Assembly: GCF_014217875.1 (NCBI RefSeq)
Contig: NZ_CP059060.1
Span: 682,001 to 746,000 of the forward strand
Reading direction: 5' to 3'
DNA from: Synechococcus sp. LTW-R
GTDB taxonomy: Bacteria; Cyanobacteriota; Cyanobacteriia; PCC-6307; Cyanobiaceae
Length of the DNA stretch: 64,000 nt
The number at the start of each line of letters is the position of its first letter. The first letter of the stretch is position 1. The notes beneath the pieces are model-generated. The model had not been told where the DNA came from and ran no database searches. It worked only from the letters and a program-made list of their open reading frames with translations. Made by a program: the position numbers and the translations under genes. Shown in pieces: positions 4,102 through 59,773 of the stretch.

Positions 4102-5132
4102 GCCGTGTTGCCGACTCCCTGTATTGGATTAACCGCTATATCGAGCGGGCGGAGAACATCTCCCGCTTTGTCGAGGTCAGTGAGGCGATGGCCCTGGACT
4201 GTCCTCCGGGGAGTGCAGAACCTTGGCAACCCCTGATCGATGCCAGTGGAGATCGCACCCTCTTTGATGCGGTGTACCCCGGTGGTGGGGCTCGGGAGGT
4301 GGTCGAGTTCCTGGTGCGGGCGGAGGCCAACCCGAGCAGCATCGTCAACTGCATCGCCATGGCCCGGGAGAACGCCCGGCAGATCAGGGATGTGATCACC
4401 AGCGAGATGTGGGAGCACCTCAACGGTCTCTACTGGACCCTGGTGGAAAACGAGGAGTTCTGGGAGGAACCAACCCAGGAGCAGCTGCGGGAGATTCGAC
4501 GTGGTTGTCAGCTCTTCTATGGCATCACGGATGCCACGTTGAGCCGGGACCTTTCCTGGCAATTCAGCCGACTTGGCCGTCTGATTGAGCGGGCGGACAA
4601 GACGACACGCATCCTCGATGTGAAGTACTTCCTACTGCTTCCCAGTCCCGATGACGTCGGTGGCGTGCTCGACGAACTGCAGTGGATGTCTCTGTTGCGC
4701 AGTGCCGGCGCCTATCAGATGTTCCGCCAATCCAATGTCGGTGACATCTCGCCAGAGGGGGTGGCAGCGTTTCTGCTGCTGAACCCGCTCTTCCCGCGCT
4801 CGGTTCGCTACTGCCTGGAGCGAATCCACGAGACCCTCCAGCTGATCGGCCGCGAATCCGCTCCGGGAACCCCCGATGACCTGGAGTGCAGGGTGGGACT
4901 GACCCAGGCCCGCTGGAGTTACACCAAAATCGACAAGCTGATCGCCGGAGGGCTGCATGAAGCCATTGACGGGTTGCAGCAGGACTTGAACGAGCTGCAC
5001 AACCTGATTCACGACCGCTACTTCGTTCTCCCCGGAGGCCTCAGCCCGGAGGATGACACGGTGATCCCGATGAATCAGAGCGCTTTACCCACCACGGCTT
5101 CCGATCAAGATCTGGCATGCACGCCCGCTTAA
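4095..5132 (+). CDS. Alpha-E domain protein (DUF403)
   Basis: An all-helical 345-residue protein, usual partner of the permuted ATP-grasp enzyme upstream. It begins MLSRVADSLYWINRYIERAE, the family signature; the second signature region is FSRLGRLIERADKTTRILDVKY near residue 155. The ATG at 4095 overlaps the upstream stop, and the gene itself overlaps the transglutaminase by 16 bases, so translation is probably coupled. Its role is inferred from genomic association with amide-bond chemistry; no catalytic motif is evident. Confidence 0.88.
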   Translation: MLSRVADSLYWINRYIERAENISRFVEVSEAMALDCPPGSAEPWQPLIDASGDRTLFDAVYPGGGAREVVEFLVRAEANPSSIVNCIAMARENARQIRDVITSEMWEHLNGLYWTLVENEEFWEEPTQEQLREIRRGCQLFYGITDATLSRDLSWQFSRLGRLIERADKTTRILDVKYFLLLPSPDDVGGVLDELQWMSLLRSAGAYQMFRQSNVGDISPEGVAAFLLLNPLFPRSVRYCLERIHETLQLIGRESAPGTPDDLECRVGLTQARWSYTKIDKLIAGGLHEAIDGLQQDLNELHNLIHDRYFVLPGGLSPEDDTVIPMNQSALPTTASDQDLACTPA

Positions 5133-5989
5133 TCCACCGCTTCAACTACAGCTACAGCCAACCCGTCCTGCTGGGCCCCCATCGCTTTTGCCTGCGGCCC
5201 AGGCCCCACGGCTTCCAGCGCCTGATTGATTTCAAGTTGGAGATCAGCCCCGAACCCAGTCAGCTCTACGAGCTCATGGCTGCAGGGGGGGACACGATTA
5301 CGCGGGCGCGCTTCCTTCAGGAAACAGAGGCCTTTCAGGTGGTCGCCACCAGTGAGGTGGAAACCTTCACGCCACCACTGATTGAGGCGTGCTTGGACGA
5401 GAGCATGCTGCAGTTGCCACTCGCCATCGGCAGGCTCAATCCCGATTTGATGAGCAACCTCCAAGGCTGGTTGCCCAATGGCCAACACGATGCCGCCGCC
5501 GTCGATCTCGCCCAGGAAGCGCTCACGGGAAGCGACGGGAGTTGCCTGAGCTTTCTGCAACAACTCATCGAAATCATTCAGGACCGGGTGAAGTACACCC
5601 AACGGCATCAAGGACCCGCTTGGCCGGCAGGTCGCACCCTCAAGGAGCGCATCGGCTCCTGCCGTGATCTGGCGATGCTGATGATCGAGTGCTGCCGCAG
5701 TCTCGGGCTGCCCGCTCGTTTCGTCAGCGGCTATCACCTGGTGGAGCCCAAGCCGGACCGCTACGACCTCCATGCCTGGACGGAGGTCTACCTGCAGGGA
5801 GCCGGTTGGCGTGGATTTGATGCCAGCGGACAAGGGGCGGTGGATGACCGCTACATCCCCGTGGTGACCTCCTCCAAATCAGACTTGACTGCGGCAGTGA
5901 GCGGAACCTTCTCCGGCCCGACCGGGGTGCAGAGCAGCTTGAGCTGGGAGATCGAGGCCGAACTGCTCAGTCCAGCCGCTCGCCATTAG
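5117..5989 (+). CDS. Transglutaminase-like cysteine protease family protein
   Basis: A 290-residue protein with the bacterial transglutaminase N-terminal beta region (MHARLIHRFNYSYSQPVLLGPH) and a papain-like transglutaminase core. The catalytic triad is visible as Cys in IGSCRDLAMLMIE, His in YDLHAWTEVYL and Asp in WRGFDASGQG. It may cleave or transfer peptide amides. Third gene of the ATP-grasp/alpha-E/transglutaminase set; start ATG 5117 lies inside the preceding gene's last codons. Confidence 0.9.
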   Translation: MHARLIHRFNYSYSQPVLLGPHRFCLRPRPHGFQRLIDFKLEISPEPSQLYELMAAGGDTITRARFLQETEAFQVVATSEVETFTPPLIEACLDESMLQLPLAIGRLNPDLMSNLQGWLPNGQHDAAAVDLAQEALTGSDGSCLSFLQQLIEIIQDRVKYTQRHQGPAWPAGRTLKERIGSCRDLAMLMIECCRSLGLPARFVSGYHLVEPKPDRYDLHAWTEVYLQGAGWRGFDASGQGAVDDRYIPVVTSSKSDLTAAVSGTFSGPTGVQSSLSWEIEAELLSPAARH

Positions 5990-27432: not shown

Positions 27433-28137
27433 ATGCCTACAGCATTCGGACTGAAGTTGCAGACTGCACGCACCAATCAACGAGCCATGACCGTTCTGGT
27501 GCTGGAGGAGTCCCAGAGACGCAAGTGGGATGGTTCCGATGATGTCCTCTTTTATGCCGAACCGCGGCTCGTCCACCACCTCGATCCAGCCTTTCGGACG
27601 CGACTGACCGCCCTGTACGCCGAGCGCATTCCGAAGAACGCCGTCGTCCTGGATCTGATGTCCAGCTGGGTCTCCCACCTCCCCGAGGACAAGCCCCTCG
27701 AGCGGGTGATCGGGCACGGCCTCAACGAAAAGGAGCTCGCGACCAACCCTCGCCTCGATAGCTACTGGCTGCAGAACCTCAACCAGAACCAAGAGCTACC
27801 GCTGCCGGACGCGAGCGTTGACGCCACCTTGATCGTCGCCGGCTGGCAGTACCTCCAATACCCCGAAGCCATCGCCAGCGAGCTCCTGCGGGTGACCCGA
27901 CCCGGCGGCCAGGTGATCGTGGCCTTCTCCAATCGGATGTTTTTCACCAAGGCACCGCTGATCTGGACCGACAGCAGCGACCAAGACCACCTGGACTATG
28001 TCGCCAGTGTTCTGGAGGCCCAAGGCTGGTCGTCAGCCGAGCGAATCGCTGAAACGACAAAAGCCTCTGGCGTGATGGGGCTGCTCGGTCAGGCCGGAGA
28101 CCCCTTCTTTGCTGTCATCAGCACCAAGCCGACCTAA
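27433..28137 (+). CDS. SAM-dependent methyltransferase (type 11-like)
   Basis: A 234-residue class I methyltransferase. Motif I appears as AVVLDLMSSWVSHLP (unusual, lacking a GxGxG), followed by GHGLNEKEL, the acidic PDASVDATLIVAGWQYLQYP and LLRVTRPGGQVIVAFSNRMFF. The substrate is unknown. ATG 27433 is used; an ATG at 27487 would give a shorter protein starting MTVLVLEE. Its stop overlaps the convergent small gene by four bases. Confidence 0.82.
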   Translation: MPTAFGLKLQTARTNQRAMTVLVLEESQRRKWDGSDDVLFYAEPRLVHHLDPAFRTRLTALYAERIPKNAVVLDLMSSWVSHLPEDKPLERVIGHGLNEKELATNPRLDSYWLQNLNQNQELPLPDASVDATLIVAGWQYLQYPEAIASELLRVTRPGGQVIVAFSNRMFFTKAPLIWTDSSDQDHLDYVASVLEAQGWSSAERIAETTKASGVMGLLGQAGDPFFAVISTKPT

Positions 28138-51286: not shown

Positions 51287-51703
51287 TCAGCCGCCATCCA
51301 CTTGGCAGCCGACCAGGGCACCAGCCGCAGCTCCGACGGGAACGCCGATCCAGCGGCCATTGCCACGGGAGAGGGCCGCTCCAGCACCGGCACCCAGGAG
51401 GCCACCGATGACGGAGCCCTCAATGCAGCTGTTGTCGTCCACCTTTTTGGATGACGTCGGGTCTTGAATGGTGCCCTCGACTGCGGTCGGGGCGTCGCAG
51501 GGGATCTCGACCTTCTCGCTCCACTTCTTGAGGTAGCCCGGGGAGTCCTTAGTTCCAGGGACGTACTCCTCCCGGTATTCGTCCTTGAAACACTGGCTGG
51601 TCTTGGAATAACCAGGCTGCGAGACCTGCTGAGCCATGGCAGGGAACACCTGGGCTGAGCTCATCGCCAGCGAGAGCCCAACGACAGCGGAGAAGCGGTT
51701 CAT
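51287..51703 (-). CDS. Secreted glycine-zipper protein
   Basis: A 138-residue exported protein with a signal peptide (MNRFSAVVGLSLAMSSAQVF, mature from about residue 25), a mid region with Cys (TSQCFKDEYREEY, KVEIPCDAPTAVE) and a C-terminal glycine zipper (GGLLGAGAGAALSRGNGRWI then GVPVGAAAGALVGCQVDGG). The zipper resembles SlyB/Rick-17kDa-like two-helix membrane segments. Likely envelope-associated. Last chromosomal gene left of the island. Confidence 0.7.
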   Translation of the reverse strand: MNRFSAVVGLSLAMSSAQVFPAMAQQVSQPGYSKTSQCFKDEYREEYVPGTKDSPGYLKKWSEKVEIPCDAPTAVEGTIQDPTSSKKVDDNSCIEGSVIGGLLGAGAGAALSRGNGRWIGVPVGAAAGALVGCQVDGG

Positions 51704-51813: not shown

Positions 51814-51863
51814 TGCAAAGAGGGTGAACCGCTGTGCCGTTCTGCCCCAGATTCCGACCTGGA
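51814..51863 (+). repeat. Left copy of 50-base direct repeat (probable att site)
   Basis: Identical over all 50 bases to 58314-58363 and in the same orientation, exactly 6500 bases apart. It starts TGCAAAGAGGGTGAACCGCT and ends ATTCCGACCTGGA. To its left is high-GC chromosomal sequence, to its right AT-rich sequence. This is the pattern of an integrated element; the flank length argues against chance. Confidence 0.85.
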
Positions 51864-51904
51864 AAGACGAAAAACAACACAGAAGCCAGCAATAGCAAAT
51901 ACAA

Positions 51905-52879
51905 CTTACTCTGACTGGGTCTTATGAGTCGATAATACAGTCAGATTGTCAGTTAACAAACGGAGGAATCAGGTGAATTGAAGTCGGCAGAACTAGCGAA
52001 ACAATTCATTCAGCCGCCTCAAACCAGTAACTGGTCATCCATTCAGAGCGGCGACGAAGCAATGGAATCCCTTAACACAATAGTGATCACCATCAGCGAC
52101 ATGCCCGAGCCTTTTGATCAATGGAAGAACGCATCACAGTCATAAGCATGAATAAAAAGAGCCAAGATGCACACCAGCTTCCACGCATCCTCTATTGGGA
52201 GCACGGGCAAATCTCAGGCTCAATCGAAGAAGGAATCGGCATTCCACTGATGCGCCAATAGGGAAACAAAACAAGGTCGATGGCACCCGGATTAATCAAA
52301 AACATTGAGAAGCAGACCAGAAAAAAAAGAAAACGAAACAACCGTTGCAATCAACACTAATCCTTGAGACCAAGAATGAATCCATCCACGGTGAATAGTT
52401 CGTGTCGAATGCAACCAGCCTCACCAATCTCAACACATCGAATTCAACTTGAACCCGACGCCAAGCAATCAATAACCAACATAAAGCATAAAACGACATA
52501 TAGCCAATAAATAGCATTACCCGCACGAATGAGCATCTAGCAGCCGAAGGAAGTACAACGGGAACTAATCATTGAAGAAAAGGATTTCAGCGATGCTAGG
52601 TAAAGTTCACGGTGCCAGGCCACAGGACTAATAACGCTGGTAAGCCTAGCGCCAATAGTGACCATCAAATGGTGCAGTGACGCTCACGATCTGCTTAGCG
52701 CAGGCCGCCATCCCTCAGAGCCCGTAAGAAGGACCACTTTTCGCAAAGTGTCGAGCTGGTGATCTCCGATGGAAGGCGGCACAAGCTGGAACGCAAGAGA
52801 CAGCTCTGAAGCAGTGAAATATCAGGGATCAGAGATCGGATCATATGCGTATTAAAGTAGGTTCATCTTCAAGCATCTG
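51905..52879. other. Gene-poor left part of the island
   Basis: Nearly 1 kb without a gene I can defend. Short ORFs exist: 27 codons (52061-52144 region, plus; MESLNTIVITISDM) and 37 codons (52148-52261, plus; MNKKSQDAHQLPRILYWEHG). A 76-residue hydrophobic minus ORF lies at 52296-52526 (MRVMLFIGYMSFYALCWLLI). None has a clear ribosome-binding site or recognisable family. These look like decayed or chance ORFs. Confidence 0.4.
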
Positions 52880-55217
52880 GTGAGCGGGTTCGGACAGCAA
52901 AGAAACGAGAAGAATAAATCGGCCAACAAAAGCCTGATCAAGAAAAAGAGCCTACTTGAATCCGGCATAAGAAACCATACAAAAGGAGACCTGCGAAAGC
53001 TGAGGAGCTATACAGACAGGCCAGACTCATAGGGTGTAAAGATGACTCTCTTTTCATAAACCTGGGAATAATTTACACAAGCAGCCGGCGCTTCACCGAG
53101 GCAGCATCTCTACAACAAGATTAGATTAATGCAAACCCAAACAATCCCAATGCACACATAAGCCTAGGCAATAGATGCTTAATACAAGGCAACCTTGACC
53201 AGAGCTTAACCTCCACCCTTGAGTCACTGCGATTAAAAGCGGAAAACCCAGATGCTCATATGAACCTAGGCAATATCTGCCAACAGCTCGACGAAACCAA
53301 GAAAGCTCTTGAGCATACTCTTAAATCGCTCGAGTTAAAACCTAAGAACCCAAATGCTCTTTTAAATCTGGGTATCATCTTCCAGCACCTCGAGGAGCCC
53401 GGGAAAGCACTAGATTCAACTCGAAATCGCTAGCATTAAACCTGACAACCCCAACGCCCTGCTTCATCTGGGGATCATATACAAGCAACTCGGCAACCCG
53501 GATCAAGCACTGGATTCAACGCTTAGATCACTCGAACTTAAACCTGATAATCCTGACGCATATCTGAACCTCGGAATTATTTACCAAGATCTTAATGATA
53601 ATGACAAAGCTCTTGCCGTAACACTTCATTCCTTGGATCTAAGACAGAACTGGAAGAGTGGGATAACTAATTTAAAATCGATAATAGAGAAGCTGAACAT
53701 TCAGCCATCAAACATAAAGAATGCAGTGAAAGCATATGAATTGCCATTAAATCGCACAGATGTCTCGCATCAAGGTCTATCGGATGTATTCTTGAAGGCA
53801 TATCTACACATAATACGAGAAGCACTCATTCCAACCGAGATAGTCGCTGAAGGCAATGAACCTCTTTACAGGTCATCGATTGGAGATTCCGAAAATCTCT
53901 CACACTATCAATCCCTACGGACTCAGATGTCGAAAGATTCCTGACTCACTTAAGAAAAGAAATATTGAAATCAACATTTCGACAAGGATTTATCCCGCCA
54001 AGACTTAAATCCCTAACAGAGGCTCTAGCTGTTCAATGTTGTTTAAATGAATACGTATATTCGACGTCGGAAGAAGAGGACCACTTAATAGCGCTGCTGA
54101 CAAGCAAGATTACTGAGAGTCCTGAGGAGATAAATGAGTATCTTGCAGTGGTGGGCTGCTACAAACCATTACAGTTAGTCAATCTAGACTCGGCTAAAAT
54201 TAGCCACGACGTCCTTTCCGGGGCTGAAAGCAAAGATTTCGTTGCGACGCACCTTACAGAACCATTCAAAGAAAAAGAAATAAAAAGACTAATGCAACCA
54301 AGTGAAGTGATTAATGACATAGTCTCAAAGAGCGTACAAGAAATGTACGAAGAGAATCCATATCCAAGATATCATTACTCAGACTATACTACTTCTACAC
54401 TTTCAAAGTTAGCATCAGAGGTGATAAGACGAGAATCGACAAAGATGAGACTTTCCTTTAACCATGAACTACTTTCTCTGCAGGAAAGCCCAAAGATACT
54501 GATAGCCGAATGCGGTACGGGTGATCAAGTTATCAAGACAAGTCGTTATAAGAATGCCAAGGTGACAGCTATTGACCTAAGTGGTAGGAGCATCGCCTAC
54601 TCAATAAGGAAAACCGAAGAGTACAATATGACAAATGTATCGTTCAAAAGATTAGACATACTAAATGCAGAGATCCTTAATGAGACTTTTGATTTAAAAC
54701 AGTGTAGTGGCGTCCTGCTCCATATGGAAAAGCCCGCAAATGGACTGTCTGCACTAGTGCAACAGCTGCAGCCAGGTGGATACATAAAACTAGGATTGTA
54801 TAGTACTGCCGCACGTAAGACTATTTCAAGGGCACAGGAAACAATCAAGAGATTAGAGATAGAAAGTACTGCGAAGGGTATACGAGAGTTGAGAAGTAAA
54901 GTCATGCGAGGCGAGATTAATGAGTTGATAGATTTACCTAGGTGCGTAAGAGACTTTTCTCGCTGTCCGAATGCCGTGACTTGTGCTTCCATGTCCAAGA
55001 GCATTGTTTTACAACAATGGAACTAGATTCTCTTCTGGACAGCCAAAACCTAGTGTTTTGTGGTTTCATGCTCTCAGACAATATTGAAAGTCTCTACCGT
55101 GAGCGATATCCCGACGATGAGGGACTAATCTGCTTGAGAAATTGGGCTGATTTTGAAAAAGAATACCCTTCAACATTCATAGGCATGTACCAGTTCTGGG
55201 CAAAGAAGCCTTACTAA
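52880..55217 (+). pseudogene. Decayed TPR-repeat methyltransferase
   Basis: One ancestral gene can be followed across three frames. It starts at GTG 52880 (SGFGQQRNEKNKSANKSLIK). It has TPR units (LGIIYTSSRRFTEAASLQQD, LGNICQQLDETKKALEHTLK, LGIIFQHLEEPGKALDST, LGIIYKQLGNPDQALDSTLR, LGIIYQDLNDNDKALAVTLH). It ends in a class I methyltransferase with the marine-cyanobacterial signature MYEENPYPRY (54343-54372) and SAM motif ILIAECGTGDQ. Breaks: frameshifts near 52998, 53422, 53439, 53886 and 54956, and an in-frame TAG at 53122-53124. All five shifts lose one base. Similar TPR-methyltransferases are common in marine Synechococcus variable regions; function unknown. Confidence 0.85.
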
Positions 55218-55387
55218 TCTCTGCCTGGTTGAACCTCTACGGCTATCCTCAAGCTATAAGAACACAGAGTTGATAGCAGGACTTAGTTCTCACCCTGGAC
55301 GGTGCTTTGTGGGGTAAGCTTCCTAGACGGTTATGGCATAGTTGTACCGTCGTCTACAAGACCGTTTGCAAAAGAGTACTGCATAGC

Positions 55388-55714
55388 TTAGCGCCGATAG
55401 ACGACCGCATTGACACATCGGATCATATCTAGTCCAAGCGAATCAAAGGTCTTCAGGTAGATATCGGCCGCGGTCCTGCAATAGCGGTCAATGTTGAGAC
55501 GGCGAATCAAGAACTCCTTTCAGACCACCCTTTCGCAGAAATAGTTGTGATCAACCTTGGCCGGCACGACCTCAGCCTTGCTGCCACTCAGCTCCGGAGT
55601 ATCGATACAAGCCAGCCGAATGCTCTCCCCTTCAGTCGTGCTGCATGTGTCACCGTTGTAGCATGACGCAAACACCACGCTGAGTAGTGCGTTGGCCTGA
55701 CCGGAGCTGCCCAC
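55388..55714 (-). pseudogene. Decayed thermonuclease (SNase) family gene
   Basis: From GTG 55714 the reading is GQANALLSVVFASCYNGDTC then ESIRLACIDTPELSGSKAEV, the staphylococcal-nuclease-like core (DGDT..., RLxxIDxPE). A TGA at 55520-55522 interrupts it, after which the same frame continues with homologous sequence (LIRRLNIDRYCRTAADIYLK ... NAVVYRR) to TAA 55388. The DGDT Asp is Asn here (YNGDT). The C-terminal segment after VVYRR is lost. A secretion signal is not seen. Confidence 0.75.
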
Positions 55715-56003
55715 TTAACAGGATGATGAACCTTGCCATAGGGATCAGCTACTTAATGTTCGACTAATCATTGCGAGCGCAGCTCAAGGCCTTGAGTTAC
55801 ACAACTAGGTCTCCAGCCACATAGGCCAAAACTTCCCGATCCTAATCACCAAAGCTACCTCATAGAGTCAAAAAAACTAGATTGATCTTTATCTGTCTCA
55901 GAGGCTTCGGACAGTCCACTAGAAAACACAGAACACGTTGCGACATGCGTACCCTAAAAACCAGACAAGCCAGGTAGAATTGTGGTAATGGGTCTCAAAG
56001 CGA

Positions 56004-56324
56004 ATGGTATCTTTAATTTCTTTTACCCTTAGCCTTGTACTCGCTTATATCTTAGCTCGAAATATCAGTCGCCTAGTTCGACGATGGACCGTAAAGCCAG
56101 AATCCCAAACGATCGACCTAACGACAGATCAAAAAACTCAGCCACGGTTAAGTGCTGAAGAGATAAAGCAACGCAATCTTGCGCATGCCGCCAAAATGCT
56201 CTCTCTCAAACAAAGAGAAAAGGAATATGAACGAGACCCCAAAAAGTTACGTAGAGGCCCACGCGGTTCCGATACAAGGTTGAGAGTTTCTGCCTGGGAG
56301 TCATGGCGAAGGTATTTTTTTTAG
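56004..56324 (+). CDS. Hypothetical membrane-anchored protein in the island
   Basis: A 106-residue intact ORF: one N-terminal helix (VSLISFTLSLVLAYILARNI) then a charged region (LSAEEIKQRNLAHAAKMLSL, KQREKEYERDPKKLRRGPRG). AT-rich codon use like the island. No family recognised; a ribosome-binding site is not obvious. Larger and cleaner than the other island ORFs, so possibly functional. Confidence 0.5.
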   Translation: MVSLISFTLSLVLAYILARNISRLVRRWTVKPESQTIDLTTDQKTQPRLSAEEIKQRNLAHAAKMLSLKQREKEYERDPKKLRRGPRGSDTRLRVSAWESWRRYFF

Positions 56325-56609
56325 TGTCGCCACGTTCTAAACATACTATCTCCTCAAGAACTTTAACTCCATACTTAAGACTAAACTAAGCTTGATCCAA
56401 TTGGCTTGGACAAACAGATGCATAACTTGGTTTAAAGAAATCAATACTGAGCCATGCGTACATGGCACAAAGAAAGTGATTCAGTAACAACCTTGTACTG
56501 CTCCATGGCTGTTGCCATCACAAAGATGAAGCCTTCTACTCTTGCCAGAGTCAAAGATAGAGGTCAATACGTTTCCTGTTGAAGTCAAAAGAGAATTGTA
56601 CAGAGAGAG

Positions 56610-56807
56610 TTACTCCGAAGATTTTGAGTCATAACTAGAAGTTATTAGACTCTGAATGGCTGGGCCCATCATGAGTGTAATTTTAGCAGAAAACATCAGA
56701 AGGGAAATAATTGCAAAGCTCTTAACAAGCAAGTCCCTAGCAGAAAGTTTTTTCACGCAAGCAAACTCAAATCTATAGGATTCTACAACCAGCTTCGCGT
56801 CAGTCAT
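56610..56807 (-). CDS. Small hypothetical protein in the island
   Basis: A 65-residue ORF (TDAKLVVESYRFEFACVKKL then a hydrophobic SFAIISLLMFSAKITLMMGP). One possible membrane helix. No recognised family and no clear ribosome-binding site; could be chance in this AT-rich sequence. Confidence 0.3.
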   Translation of the reverse strand: MTDAKLVVESYRFEFACVKKLSARDLLVKSFAIISLLMFSAKITLMMGPAIQSLITSSYDSKSSE

Positions 56808-57007
56808 GTCAGAGCTTGGATTAAATAGCGGCAGCCCACTTAGTACAATCCAAGGAAGGACCTGAAGCGTATCTGTATTTAATCACTTTTCTTAATTCCC
56901 GCAAAACAGGATTGCTGTTTCTTGCCAGTTAACACAAGGGAATCTAGCTGGCCGTAGCTGAACACTTAAATGGTGCGATACCACTCCCTGCCCTTCAAAC
57001 TACCTCT

Positions 57008-57503
57008 TCAGATGGAACGATTCATGCGTTGCTGAAACTCTTGGTGCCAAACCAGCAAGGACTTTGAACCGGGTATTTGATTTACCATCAGTGCTGTTTG
57101 TTGACGGATCAGCTCCTCTGATTGATTCAAATCGTGACTTGTCGTGGCATGGGGTGGCACATACCAATCCGTTCTAACAAACAACTCAATTGTGCTGTCT
57201 TTGGGGTCTGGGATGTACAGGGACCAACTTCCACCATGCTTCATCGAGCGCATGCCAGATATGTCAAGTTCACTTAAGACACGAAACGTATCGATTAGAC
57301 CATAGAGTGTCTGTATTTCAAATGAGATCTGGTTAAGCGTCGATGCGCTCCCCTGCGCACGACCAGGGGCCAGTACGATTTGATCATGTTCCAGCAGAGA
57401 GCGGGATAGAGATACCAAGAACATCGCAATAAAAGTGCTCCATCTCTTTCATACTTTTCACATACAGCCCAAGATAAGAAAATGTCGGCTGGAAAGGCAA
57501 CAA
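57008..57503 (-). pseudogene. Decayed VOC (glyoxalase/dioxygenase-fold) gene
   Basis: N-terminal VOC strand-helix is readable from TTG 57503 (FSYLGLYVKSMKEMEHFYCD VLG). A frameshift with loss of about a dozen residues lies near 57424. Thereafter the core reads LSRSLLEHDQIVLAPGRAQG, STLNQISFEIQTLYGLIDTF, KHGGSWSLYIPDPKDSTIEL and FVRTDWYVPPH, with the usual C-terminal tail (LVWHQEFQQRMNR). The downstream part alone could be translated from 57424 but would lack the first metal-ligand His. Confidence 0.75.
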
Positions 57504-57534
57504 GGCAGAATTGACTTCGAAACTATGAGCAACT

Positions 57535-57888
57535 TTGAAAACAGCTTGGCACGATCATCTCGTTGTCACCGACCACCGAGGCACGCATCGGCGGCATCAG
57601 GTAAGGGGATCCTTAAGGCTTGCCAGCGCCGTCGCCTTGGCAGCTACCCACAAAGTGGGCTTGCTGAGTTGGATGGAGAAAGGCCTGCCTCCAGTCTTTG
57701 AAACAGAGACTGTTTTCACAGTTGAGATTACTGGCGAAGACTGGTTTCGAGTTTGCGATCCGGAGCGAGTCTGCGTGGAGGTAAATGGGCTGGGCCGCGC
57801 CTATCAAGCGATCAAAGAGCGTGAATTGGAGCTGTTGCTGCTTCGGACCGCACAGTGTGATGACAAGTTTTCAGGCTTGGGCCAATGA
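57535..57888 (+). CDS. Hypothetical protein near the right island end
   Basis: A 117-residue TTG-started ORF: KTAWHDHLVVTDHRGTHRRH, LASAVALAATHKVGLLSWME, VFTVEITGEDWFRVCDPERV. GC is higher here than in the island centre, closer to the chromosome. No family recognised. Start uncertain. Confidence 0.45.
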   Translation: MKTAWHDHLVVTDHRGTHRRHQVRGSLRLASAVALAATHKVGLLSWMEKGLPPVFETETVFTVEITGEDWFRVCDPERVCVEVNGLGRAYQAIKERELELLLLRTAQCDDKFSGLGQ

Positions 57889-58064
57889 CGGCAACTGGTA
57901 GGGCGATCCGATTCATCGTTCTGATCGTATTCATCGGCTGTTTGTCGCAGTGACTCGAAATGAACCGCGGGTTAGGCGCACCGTTCCATCTGCAAGTGGG
58001 GGACTCCCGGCGTCCGGGATAAGTAGCCCGAGACCCGGCATGAGATGCCTTGGTTTTTAGAGGG

Positions 58065-58090
58065 CTTAAAGAAAGGCCCCCTTGGGGGGC
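58065..58090 (-). terminator. Minus-strand terminator inside the right island end
   Basis: Arms GCCCCC (58076-58081) and GGGGGC (58085-58090) with a three-base loop; on the minus strand this is followed by CTTTCTTTAA. It would end a transcript coming leftwards from purK or the candidate RNA. Confidence 0.55.
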
Positions 58091-58247
58091 ACTCGCTCTC
58101 TGTTCTCTGTCGAAAATTTCCGAACCCCTATCTCGTCCGCCCAAGGACTCCAGACTCCCCCATGGCCCCTTCTGCGTTGAACGTCTCTGCTGGAAGAACT
58201 AAGGACCCACATGAGAGCCTCTGCAGCCCCTTGAGACGGCGCTCAGC

Positions 58248-58282
58248 TGTCAGTCAATGTGTCAGTGAGCTTGTCAGTCAAT
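58248..58282 (+). repeat. Three 12-base-spaced TGTCAGT repeats beside the right att site
   Basis: TGTCAGTCAAT at 58248-58258, TGTCAGTGA at 58260-58268 and TGTCAGTCAAT at 58272-58282, exactly 12 bases apart. They end 31 bases before the right 50-base repeat. A related TGTCAGTTAA lies at 51948-51957 inside the left end. The spacing (near one helical turn) suggests protein binding, for example recombinase or excisionase arm sites. Confidence 0.6.
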
Positions 58283-58313
58283 CGGATTCAATAAAACCCG
58301 AGATCAAATGTGC

Positions 58314-58363
58314 TGCAAAGAGGGTGAACCGCTGTGCCGTTCTGCCCCAGATTCCGACCTGGA
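58314..58363 (+). repeat. Right copy of 50-base direct repeat (probable att site)
   Basis: Perfect copy of 51814-51863. It lies 157 bases beyond the purK stop and overlaps one strand of the stems in the candidate RNA. The first base outside the match differs at both ends, so the identity is bounded. Confidence 0.85.
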
Positions 58364-58440
58364 TAAACCAGAAGGGGAGTCAAAGCGCAGATTCGTTTCC
58401 GGCTACGAGGCCGGTCTACGGCACTGTCGCGACAGACGCC
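58314..58440 (-). ncRNA. Candidate structured RNA downstream of purK, possibly 6S RNA
   Basis: On the minus strand, arms 58418-58424/58334-58340 (7 bases) and 58387-58391/58341-58345 (5 bases) stack on one side. A CCGG-loop-CCGG hairpin (58399-58414) bulges between them on the other. Hairpins 58424-58435 (CTGTCGCGACAG) and 58359-58371 (CTGG/CCAG) add to it. The 50-base att repeat supplies one arm set. My recollection is that cyanobacterial 6S RNA (ssaA) follows purK, which fits position, but I cannot confirm the consensus. True ends are unknown. Confidence 0.35.
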
Positions 58441-58519
58441 CCAAGTCGAAAAGGGAGTCAGATCAGAAAACTGTAAAAGGCAGTGACCAACACAGCAGTC
58501 CGCCCAAATCCTAGGCCCA

Positions 58520-59734
58520 CTAGGCCGCCGCCGTCCCGCCTGGCAGAGGCCAAATCGAGCGCACCTCTTGCAGCCGCTCCATGGCCTCGTGCCGGCGCTC
58601 CTGAGCGTCGGTCGAGCGAAGCAGGACGGTCAAATGACCCAATTTCCGGCCATGGGAAGAACCCCGTTTGCCGTACCAATGGAGATGGGCATCAGCCAGG
58701 GCCGCCAAGGCCTGACGCTTATCGCCGTAGTCCGCTTCAGGATCATCCGCGGAGCGCTGCTCAAAGCCCAACAGATTCACCATCAGGGCACCGGGAACCA
58801 CCAAGGAGGGCTCAACCGCAGCCTGACCACTCACGCAAAGGAGTTGGAGGTCGAACTGACTGCAGCTGCTGGCCTCAATCGAGTAGTGACCGGAATTGTG
58901 TGTCCGCGGGGCAAGCTCGTTGATCATCAGACCGCGGCGCCCATAGAAGAACTCCAGGGACAAGACGCCGACGTAGTCCAGGGATGTCAGAAGAGAAGCC
59001 GCGATGTTGCGGGCGGCCTGCTGCAGAGCGTGGCTGGCTTCTACCGGGGCCAACACCCAATCACAAACTTGCTCGTGTTGGTGTGTTTGAACCAACGGCA
59101 GGCAGACCACCTCGCCAAAGCGATCGCGAGCCGCCACCAGAGCCAGCTCCTGCTCGAACTCGACGAACTCCTCCACGATCCAATTGGCCGGATCAACCTG
59201 TGCGATCAATGCCACGAGATCCTCTGGGCCACGCAACACGGCGGTGCCCTTGCCGTCGTAACCGCCCGTGGCCGCCTTGGCCATCAGCGGGAACTGAAAC
59301 CCATCGGGGAGGGCAGGTTGGCCCGCGCTCGGCGGCGTGGTCTTGGACGGGGTCGGGCAGGCCGCCGTCAGGGGGAACCAACGGGGCGACGGCAGATTCA
59401 ACCGCTGCAGCAACTCCCGCTGGTTGCGCTTGCAGACCAGAGGTTGCAGGGCCTTCAGGCTGGGGACGAACTGGACCCCTTGGGCCGCCAAGGGCGCCAA
59501 GCCCTCCAGATCAATCCACTCGTTCTCAAAGCTGATGGCAGAGCAACGTGTCGCCAGCTCAGCCGTGCCCGCCACGTCGCGGACGGAGGCCTCCACCACT
59601 CCAGCGGCCAAGCCAACGGCCGGATCCTCAGGGGAGGGGGTCTGGACCTGCAGCGCGATCTGCCGGCGTTGGGCAGCTTCGGCAAGCATCCAGGCCAACT
59701 GGCCGCCGCCGACGATGCCGATCGCAGGGCCCAT
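58520..59734 (-). CDS. purK: N5-carboxyaminoimidazole ribonucleotide synthase
   Basis: A 404-residue ATP-grasp enzyme of purine synthesis that carboxylates aminoimidazole ribonucleotide. It starts MGPAIGIVGGGQLAWMLAEA. ATP-binding blocks: FQFPLMAKAATGGYDGKGTA, NWIVEEFVEFEQELALVAAR and EFFYGRRGLMINELAPRTHN SGHY. Start ATG 59734 preferred, with an in-frame ATG at 59770 as alternative. It is the first chromosomal gene right of the island and lies 39 bases after the MFS gene ends. Confidence 0.93.
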   Translation of the reverse strand: MGPAIGIVGGGQLAWMLAEAAQRRQIALQVQTPSPEDPAVGLAAGVVEASVRDVAGTAELATRCSAISFENEWIDLEGLAPLAAQGVQFVPSLKALQPLVCKRNQRELLQRLNLPSPRWFPLTAACPTPSKTTPPSAGQPALPDGFQFPLMAKAATGGYDGKGTAVLRGPEDLVALIAQVDPANWIVEEFVEFEQELALVAARDRFGEVVCLPLVQTHQHEQVCDWVLAPVEASHALQQAARNIAASLLTSLDYVGVLSLEFFYGRRGLMINELAPRTHNSGHYSIEASSCSQFDLQLLCVSGQAAVEPSLVVPGALMVNLLGFEQRSADDPEADYGDKRQALAALADAHLHWYGKRGSSHGRKLGHLTVLLRSTDAQERRHEAMERLQEVRSIWPLPGGTAAA

Positions 59735-59773
59735 GCGTCTTGAGCTCCAATCGTTCAATTTCGCATGCAAGGC

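What the first reader, a model, noticed from the sequence alone, without database searches (positions are those of the whole stretch)
51814..58363. Perfect 50-base direct repeats bracket a 6.5-kb AT-rich island
The two copies are identical over 50 bases and exactly 6500 bases apart, each at the point where base composition changes. This is the signature of a site-specifically integrated element. No recombinase is visible inside, so it is either decayed or mobilised by an enzyme encoded elsewhere. It may be a small cargo element of a type not well described.
Basis: partly seen in the sequence, partly recalled or inferred. Interest (0 to 1): 0.8.

Follow-up and report, generated by a model that had tools for sequence, protein, structure and literature searches.

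The report
Island inserted in 6S RNA gene
A 6.5-kb foreign DNA island in a small cyanobacterium sits at the end of the gene for 6S RNA, a regulator of transcription, and related islands at the same spot in other cyanobacteria carry the enzyme that probably put it there, which this copy has lost.

Summary
In detail: two identical 50-base copies, 6500 bases apart, bracket an AT-rich segment, and the genome holds no other copy. The repeat is the 3' end of the 6S RNA gene: 42 bases of the Rfam-modelled RNA plus 8 beyond. The right copy belongs to the intact gene next to purK; the left copy is the displaced fragment. A relative (G003) has the empty site with one copy. Two other members of the genus carry different islands at the same place, both with a tyrosine recombinase gene just inside the left repeat (one frameshifted). 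The window island shares their end sequences, including 12-base-period arm-like repeats, but shows no trace of the recombinase. It is best read as an integrase-less (CIME-like) relic of a 6S-targeting island. Of 18 complete or nearly complete relatives of that recombinase in picocyanobacteria, 13 lie beside a 6S 3'-end fragment, 1 has a weak match, 1 could not be tested and 3 do not. Two sister islands encode a T7-like RNA polymerase. My literature searches showed no report of 6S RNA as an integration target. Recombination itself is inferred, not shown.

The parts
58322..58504 (-). Intact 6S RNA gene (Rfam RF00013), the target gene
   Evidence: 95.5 bits against a gathering score of 46.4, E 1.1e-18; fold z-score -4.11; matching DNA 94-98% identical in 21 of the other 24 genomes of the genus, 89% in one, no match in two
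58314..58363 (-). Repeat copy within the intact gene: last 42 nt of the modelled 6S RNA plus 8 nt downstream (attR-like)
51814..51863 (-). Displaced 6S 3'-end fragment (attL-like), 50/50 identical
51864..58313 (.). Island body, AT-rich, mostly decayed genes
   Evidence: GC profile; ORF coverage 42%; absent from G003
58248..58281 (+). Right-end arm-like repeats: TGTCAGT at 58248, 58260, 58272 (12-base period)
   Evidence: the same motif lies at both ends of the G017 and G015 islands
51927..51957 (+). Left-end arm-like segment, degenerate (one exact TGTCAGT at 51947)
   Evidence: 25 of 31 bases match the left end of the G017 island with the repeat itself left out; 0 of 1000 shuffles score as high. 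Against G015: 0 of 1000, but the best shuffle comes within one point
58113..58313 (+). Right-end segment shared with the G017 island, repeat excluded
   Evidence: 85.6% over 201 bases
53050..55217 (+). Broken gene: TPR-like repeats followed by a SAM methyltransferase domain; at least one in-frame stop and three frame changes
   Evidence: three-frame reading; PF13649 E 1.5e-11; PHROG methyltransferase 7.1e-7. The TPR label is read by eye, no call supports it
55520..55714 (-). 64-aa ORF with weak matches to a phage-protein family of unknown function (E 0.00027) and a nuclease family (E 0.0099)
   Evidence: no Pfam family
55378..55663 (.). Segment with a 77% similar copy elsewhere in the same genome (1255541-1255826)
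57008..57424 (-). 138-aa ORF, no Pfam, NCBIfam or PHROGs family; DNA about 68-75% similar to stretches in G234, G097, G122 and G249
58520..59770 (-). purK, conserved neighbour beside the 6S gene
   Evidence: ATP-grasp 1.2e-48 and PurK_C 7.3e-15; the right flank matches in all 14 regions compared
51287..51703 (-). Glycine-zipper protein, left chromosomal flank
   Evidence: PF05433 E 1e-9; leads to the single 6S copy in G003

Best explanation
The segment is the remnant of an integrative element that entered the 3' end of the 6S RNA gene by site-specific recombination catalysed by a tyrosine recombinase. The element carried a copy of the last ~50 bases of the target, so the 6S gene stayed whole on one side (right copy) while the displaced 3' end marks the other side (left copy). 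The recombinase gene, which in sister islands starts about 50-100 bases inside the left repeat, has since been lost, leaving both attachment sites and the arm-like repeats: a CIME-like element that cannot move unless a related integrase is supplied in trans. Shown by sequence: repeat identity, 6S gene, empty site, sister islands with recombinase, shared end sequences. Inferred: that the recombinase acts at this site, that the TGTCAGT repeats bind it, and that it was lost by deletion from this copy.
For: Repeat = 6S 3' end. Empty site in G003: single copy, 49 of 50 bases with one gap. Of 25 genomes of the genus, 23 have a 6S match and exactly 3 have a second, partial 6S copy; these 3 are the island carriers. 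G017 and G015 islands encode PF00589 recombinases just inside the left repeat (G015's is frameshifted). End sequences shared with G017, repeat excluded: 25 of 31 bases left, 85.6% over 201 bases right. Arm-like repeats, mostly 12-14 bases apart, shared by both ends in 8 of 10 elements at shuffle P of 0.002 or less. No integrase trace in the window island.
Against: No excision or recombination was observed. No same-species empty site was found; the nearest one, G003, is about 72-80% identical in the left flank. G213 shows no shared arm repeat (P 0.97) and G278 only P 0.056; the control shuffles single bases, not pairs. 3 of 18 related integrases are not beside 6S. At the left end only 31 bases outside the repeat match G017. 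The link of this island to that integrase family rests on shared target and shared ends, not on an integrase of its own.
Confidence: 0.87

Rival explanations
1. The element is not a dead relic but a naturally non-autonomous (MITE-like or satellite-like) element that travels by borrowing the integrase of a related 6S island.
For: Both repeats are still identical, 50/50, and the right arm array is intact with three sites at 12-base spacing, as a trans-mobilised element would need.
Against: The left arm array is degenerate, the cargo is broken, the own genome holds no close integrase of this kind (only match 25% identical), and no second copy of the island appeared among 300 family genomes. Zero changes in 50 bases is too short a clock to prove recency.
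Confidence: 0.1
2. The left copy is a leftover of an ordinary duplication of the 6S locus, and the AT-rich DNA between came in by homologous recombination or several unrelated insertions.
For: Two complete identical 6S copies 26 kb apart exist in another genome, G356, so the gene can be duplicated (or that is an assembly artefact).
Against: Only the 3' end is duplicated, and in islands of several genera such a fragment lies beside an integrase gene (13 of 18); a single copy joins the flanks in G003.
Confidence: 0.02
3. A transposon or IS-mediated insertion whose 50-base repeats are a target duplication.
For: An IS481-type transposase lies in the G015 island.
Against: A 50-base duplication that matches an RNA gene end and recurs at the same site in other genomes is not a transposon target duplication as generally known (recalled); no inverted repeats pair the two island ends.
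Confidence: 0.01

Closest known systems
Genomic islands in tRNA/tmRNA genes (Islander/TIGER sense)
   Same: Tyrosine recombinase in the sister islands, integration at the 3' end of a non-coding RNA gene, target gene kept whole, displaced fragment at the far end, empty site in a relative.
   Different: The target is the 6S RNA gene. The TIGER/Islander resource note reports sites as tRNA/tmRNA, protein-coding or intergenic (PMC12424338, whole text read); a 6S site would presumably fall under intergenic. The window copy has no integrase.
CIME (cis-mobilisable element: attachment sites without a recombination module; recalled)
   Same: Flanked by attL- and attR-like sites, no integrase, end sequences like those of integrase-bearing elements.
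   Different: The known examples derive from conjugative elements (recalled); conjugation genes were not looked for in the sister islands.
Tycheposons of Prochlorococcus (Hackl et al. 2023, recalled; the paper was not found in the held library)
   Same: Small integrative elements with tyrosine recombinases in picocyanobacteria.
   Different: As recalled they sit at tRNA genes; here it is 6S RNA and no tRNA lies in the window. Whether 6S sites were included there could not be checked.
Phage satellites and T7-like cyanophages
   Same: Two sister 6S islands (G278, G174) encode a T7-like RNA polymerase, one also a head-assembly/scaffold-like protein.
   Different: The polymerases are 26-28% identical to cyanophage ones in the ten rows shown for each. 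The eight window-island ORFs scanned show no phage hallmark gene; one has weak PHROGs matches.

Membership tests
Site-specifically integrated genomic island | Direct repeats at both ends, one being the 3' end of a gene kept intact | tested here: met
Site-specifically integrated genomic island | Empty site with one copy in a relative | tested here: met
   G003
Site-specifically integrated genomic island | Foreign base composition | tested here: met
   right boundary gradual
Site-specifically integrated genomic island | Integrase gene inside | tested here: not met
   none in the window island; present in the G017 and G015 islands at the same site
CIME | Attachment sites at both ends but no recombination module | tested here: met
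CIME | Ends homologous to an integrase-bearing element | tested here: met
   right end strongly, left end over 31 bases (G017)
CIME | Excision or accretion with help in trans | not testable with these tools
   needs an experiment
Island in a tRNA or tmRNA gene | Repeat is part of a tRNA/tmRNA gene | tested here: not met
   no tRNA or tmRNA found in the window; repeat is 6S RNA
Tycheposon (recalled definition) | tRNA-targeting tyrosine recombinase element | tested here: not met
   target is 6S RNA, no recombinase in this copy; the defining paper was not available
Phage satellite | Phage hallmark genes in the element | tested here: not met
   eight window-island ORFs: PHROGs gives a methyltransferase and two weak matches only, Pfam only the methyltransferase. 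A T7-like polymerase is present in sister islands G278 and G174

The most novel reading that the evidence does not exclude
The 6S RNA gene is a dedicated integration site for a deeply split family of tyrosine recombinases in Prochlorococcus, Synechococcus and relatives. The islands range from relics to phage-satellite-like elements with their own T7-like RNA polymerase, and living in the gene of the RNA that restrains the host RNA polymerase may let them sense or tune host transcription when they integrate, excise or replace the gene's 3' end and terminator.
Probability: 0.2. Interest if true: 0.78.

Novelty: new variant of a known kind. Interest (0 to 1): 0.58.

Why it matters
Integration into tRNA and tmRNA genes is textbook; a recurrent site in the 6S RNA gene, served by its own recombinase family in abundant marine phototrophs, appears not to have been described (searches with 6S or ssrS terms; held open-access papers only). 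It gives a precise rule for finding more islands that tRNA-based searches would miss, offers integrases with a conserved chromosomal landing site, and links mobile elements, some with their own RNA polymerase, to a global regulator of transcription. The window copy itself is a relic and modest; the interest lies in the site and the family.

Tried and rejected
Transposon or IS insertion: rejected because the repeat is a gene end that recurs as target in other genomes. Simple duplication of 6S: rejected because only the 3' end is copied and an integrase sits beside it in relatives. Integrase remnant in the island: searched by tblastn and by a profile from 13 integrases on six frames with all filters off; nothing (best window frame E 0.58). 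Integrase in trans from the same genome: 14 PF00589 matches exist, the only match to the 6S-type enzyme is 25% identical, so no obvious helper.

Viral origin of the integrase: two scans of viral contigs gave none and one weak partial match; 50,697 phage records gave no match for the G017 enzyme and one 22% match for the G174 one. That the T7-like polymerase goes with the 6S site: not shown. 27 of 400 family genomes, the window's own included, have such a polymerase at E 1e-20 or better; besides G000, G174 and G278 I looked up 6S in 12 of the other 24. Ten had a 6S match: in 5 it is on the polymerase's contig but more than 300 kb away, in 5 on another contig, which decides nothing. Recency from the perfect repeat: dropped, 50 bases is too short a clock.

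Two partial integrase matches were dropped before the count of 18: L102 (6S about 1.6 kb away in the usual layout, but no second 6S fragment in the held DNA) and L103 (no 6S in it). G122 was tested only against the window's 6S end; its own 6S lies over 500 kb away. Further second 6S matches in G139 and G339 were fetched in part but not analysed. The G046 island was read only at its two ends. The family searches are samples of a larger group, and the match list was cut.
Full report
Observation. Looser similarity reaches 76 bases at 86%. A search of the genome (2,415,533 bases, one contig) gave only these two places. GC falls to about 0.39-0.56 inside against mostly 0.59-0.69 outside.

What the repeat is. 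Rfam finds one RNA in 50.5-60 kb: 6S RNA (RF00013) on the minus strand at 58504-58322, 95.5 bits, folding better than shuffles (z -4.11), beside purK. A 6S gene (ssaA) with its start site in purK is also reported for the cyanobacterium Nodularia (PMC3610870, passages). The right repeat copy is the last 42 bases of the modelled RNA plus 8 bases downstream. The left copy is therefore a detached 6S 3' end. This is the anatomy of integration into the 3' end of an RNA gene, with the gene restored.

Empty site and sister islands. Of 25 genomes of the genus, 23 have a 6S match and exactly three (the window's genome G000, G017, G015) have a second, partial copy of its 3' end. In G003 the left-flank gene leads directly to a single 6S copy, and the window flanks joined across one repeat align to it (49 of 50 repeat bases, one gap). 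In G017 (9.7 kb) and G015 (6.3 kb) different islands sit at the same place. Each has a tyrosine recombinase gene just inside the left repeat: 433 aa in G017 (PF00589, 8.5e-8), two overlapping pieces in G015 (the longer one PF00589, 1.9e-10); G017 and the longer G015 piece are 65% identical. With the repeat left out, the window island matches the G017 island over 201 bases at the right end (85.6%) and over 31 bases at the left end (25 identical, 0 of 1000 shuffles as good), but not in the gene that follows. A profile of 13 such integrases finds nothing in its six frames.

Arm-like repeats. TGTCAGT repeats at 12-base spacing lie at 58248, 58260 and 58272, and at both ends of the G017 and G015 islands; the G003 region has none. 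In ten elements I asked for a 7-mer shared by the inner 250 bases of both ends: it is beyond 1000 single-base shuffles in eight (P 0.002 or less), borderline in G278 (0.056) and absent in G213 (0.97). The copies lie mostly 12-14 bases apart and 20-100 bases from the repeat, with a few outliers. The motif differs between lineages. I take these as arm-type recombinase sites; this is inference.

How general. The G017 recombinase has relatives (E 1e-30 or better) in 12 of 400 family genomes, 13 copies. A pattern-based scan of named genomes gave 11 loci, of which five complete and two partial integrases are new, all from Prochlorococcus. Of the 18 complete or nearly complete ones, 13 have a 6S 3'-end fragment beside the integrase start. 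In nine of these the intact 6S lies at the other end in the same layout: G017, G015, G278, G174 (Synechococcus sp. UW140), G046 (about 40 kb), G213 (an Aphanothece MAG, about 22 kb), G108, and Prochlorococcus L095 and L097. In four no intact 6S was found in the DNA examined (G164, L096, L098, L099). One match is weak (G389), one contig ends too soon although 6S lies 4.3 kb away (G130), and three are not at 6S (G186, G122, second copy in G174). In L095 and L097 the repeat is about 100 bases and reaches beyond the gene over what looks like its terminator hairpin. The tree shows several deep groups, most at 6S, with open branching at the base, so one ancient 6S specificity is plausible but not proved.

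Cargo. The window island is mostly decayed: a gene with a methyltransferase domain has at least one stop and three frame changes, and the other seven island ORFs scanned match no Pfam family. Pieces resemble stretches in 30 other genomes of 300 searched, but none of these holds the island. The sister islands differ: a Nif11-like peptide and an IS481-type transposase (G015), a GIY-YIG protein (L097) and, in G278 and G174, a full-length T7-like RNA polymerase, 26-28% identical to those of cyanophages in the rows shown.

Mechanism and verdict. Most likely an element of this family integrated at 6S and later lost its recombinase, leaving a CIME-like relic. Whether a related integrase could still move it is open. 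It is a new variant of a known kind: an RNA-gene island with an unusual target.

Literature. Searches with 6S or ssrS terms showed no paper on 6S RNA as an integration site; one search matched 548 papers on three of four terms, of which 15 were listed, none holding '6S RNA gene'. All seven papers listed were searched for 6S/ssrS terms and only passages seen (PMC2515195, PMC2245857, PMC3032704, PMC4809877, PMC3610870, PMC8978632, PMC2864571): 6S is named as an RNA, not as an integration site. PMC12424338 was read whole; PMC12884075, PMC10111431, PMC2784084, PMC3864950 and PMC3478194 hold no '6S RNA'. Searches asked about satellites and islands in cyanobacteria without 6S. Two key papers (PMC7192596, PMC100330) are not held, and the tycheposon paper did not appear in one search, so prior notice there cannot be excluded.

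After checking. 

Noticed in passing
G000 2044757-2055922 (L130:4758-15923): The window's own genome has another island-like segment: T7-like RNA polymerase (PF00940 2.7e-45), an integrase-like gene (PF00589 5.9e-6, just under the cut-off; 27.5 bits, just over it) and, at its ends, a 32-base repeat (81%) of the argJ 3' end plus TGGGTAAC repeats. It looks like an element integrated at the end of argJ.
   Followed up: partly
L072:9587-12034 and L073:7546-9975: Two 6S-integrated islands encode full-length T7-like RNA polymerases; L073 also a head-assembly/scaffold-like protein at 5102-5809. They may be satellites of T7-like cyanophages.
   Followed up: partly
27 of 400 family genomes: T7-like RNA polymerase genes or pieces at E 1e-20 or better are scattered through picocyanobacterial genomes, some with stops.
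   Followed up: no
G356 C9:1648-1830 and 27700-27882 (L091, L092): Two complete 6S genes, identical over the 253 bases compared, 26 kb apart on one contig; a real duplication or an assembly artefact.
   Followed up: no
L074 (G174 C2): A close relative of the 6S-linked G174 integrase in the same genome shows no 6S fragment beside it, perhaps a secondary or switched target.
   Followed up: no
L095 8986-9086 and L097 1762-1857: In Prochlorococcus the duplicated segment reaches past the 6S gene over a likely terminator hairpin (by eye), so integration would swap the gene's terminator.
   Followed up: no
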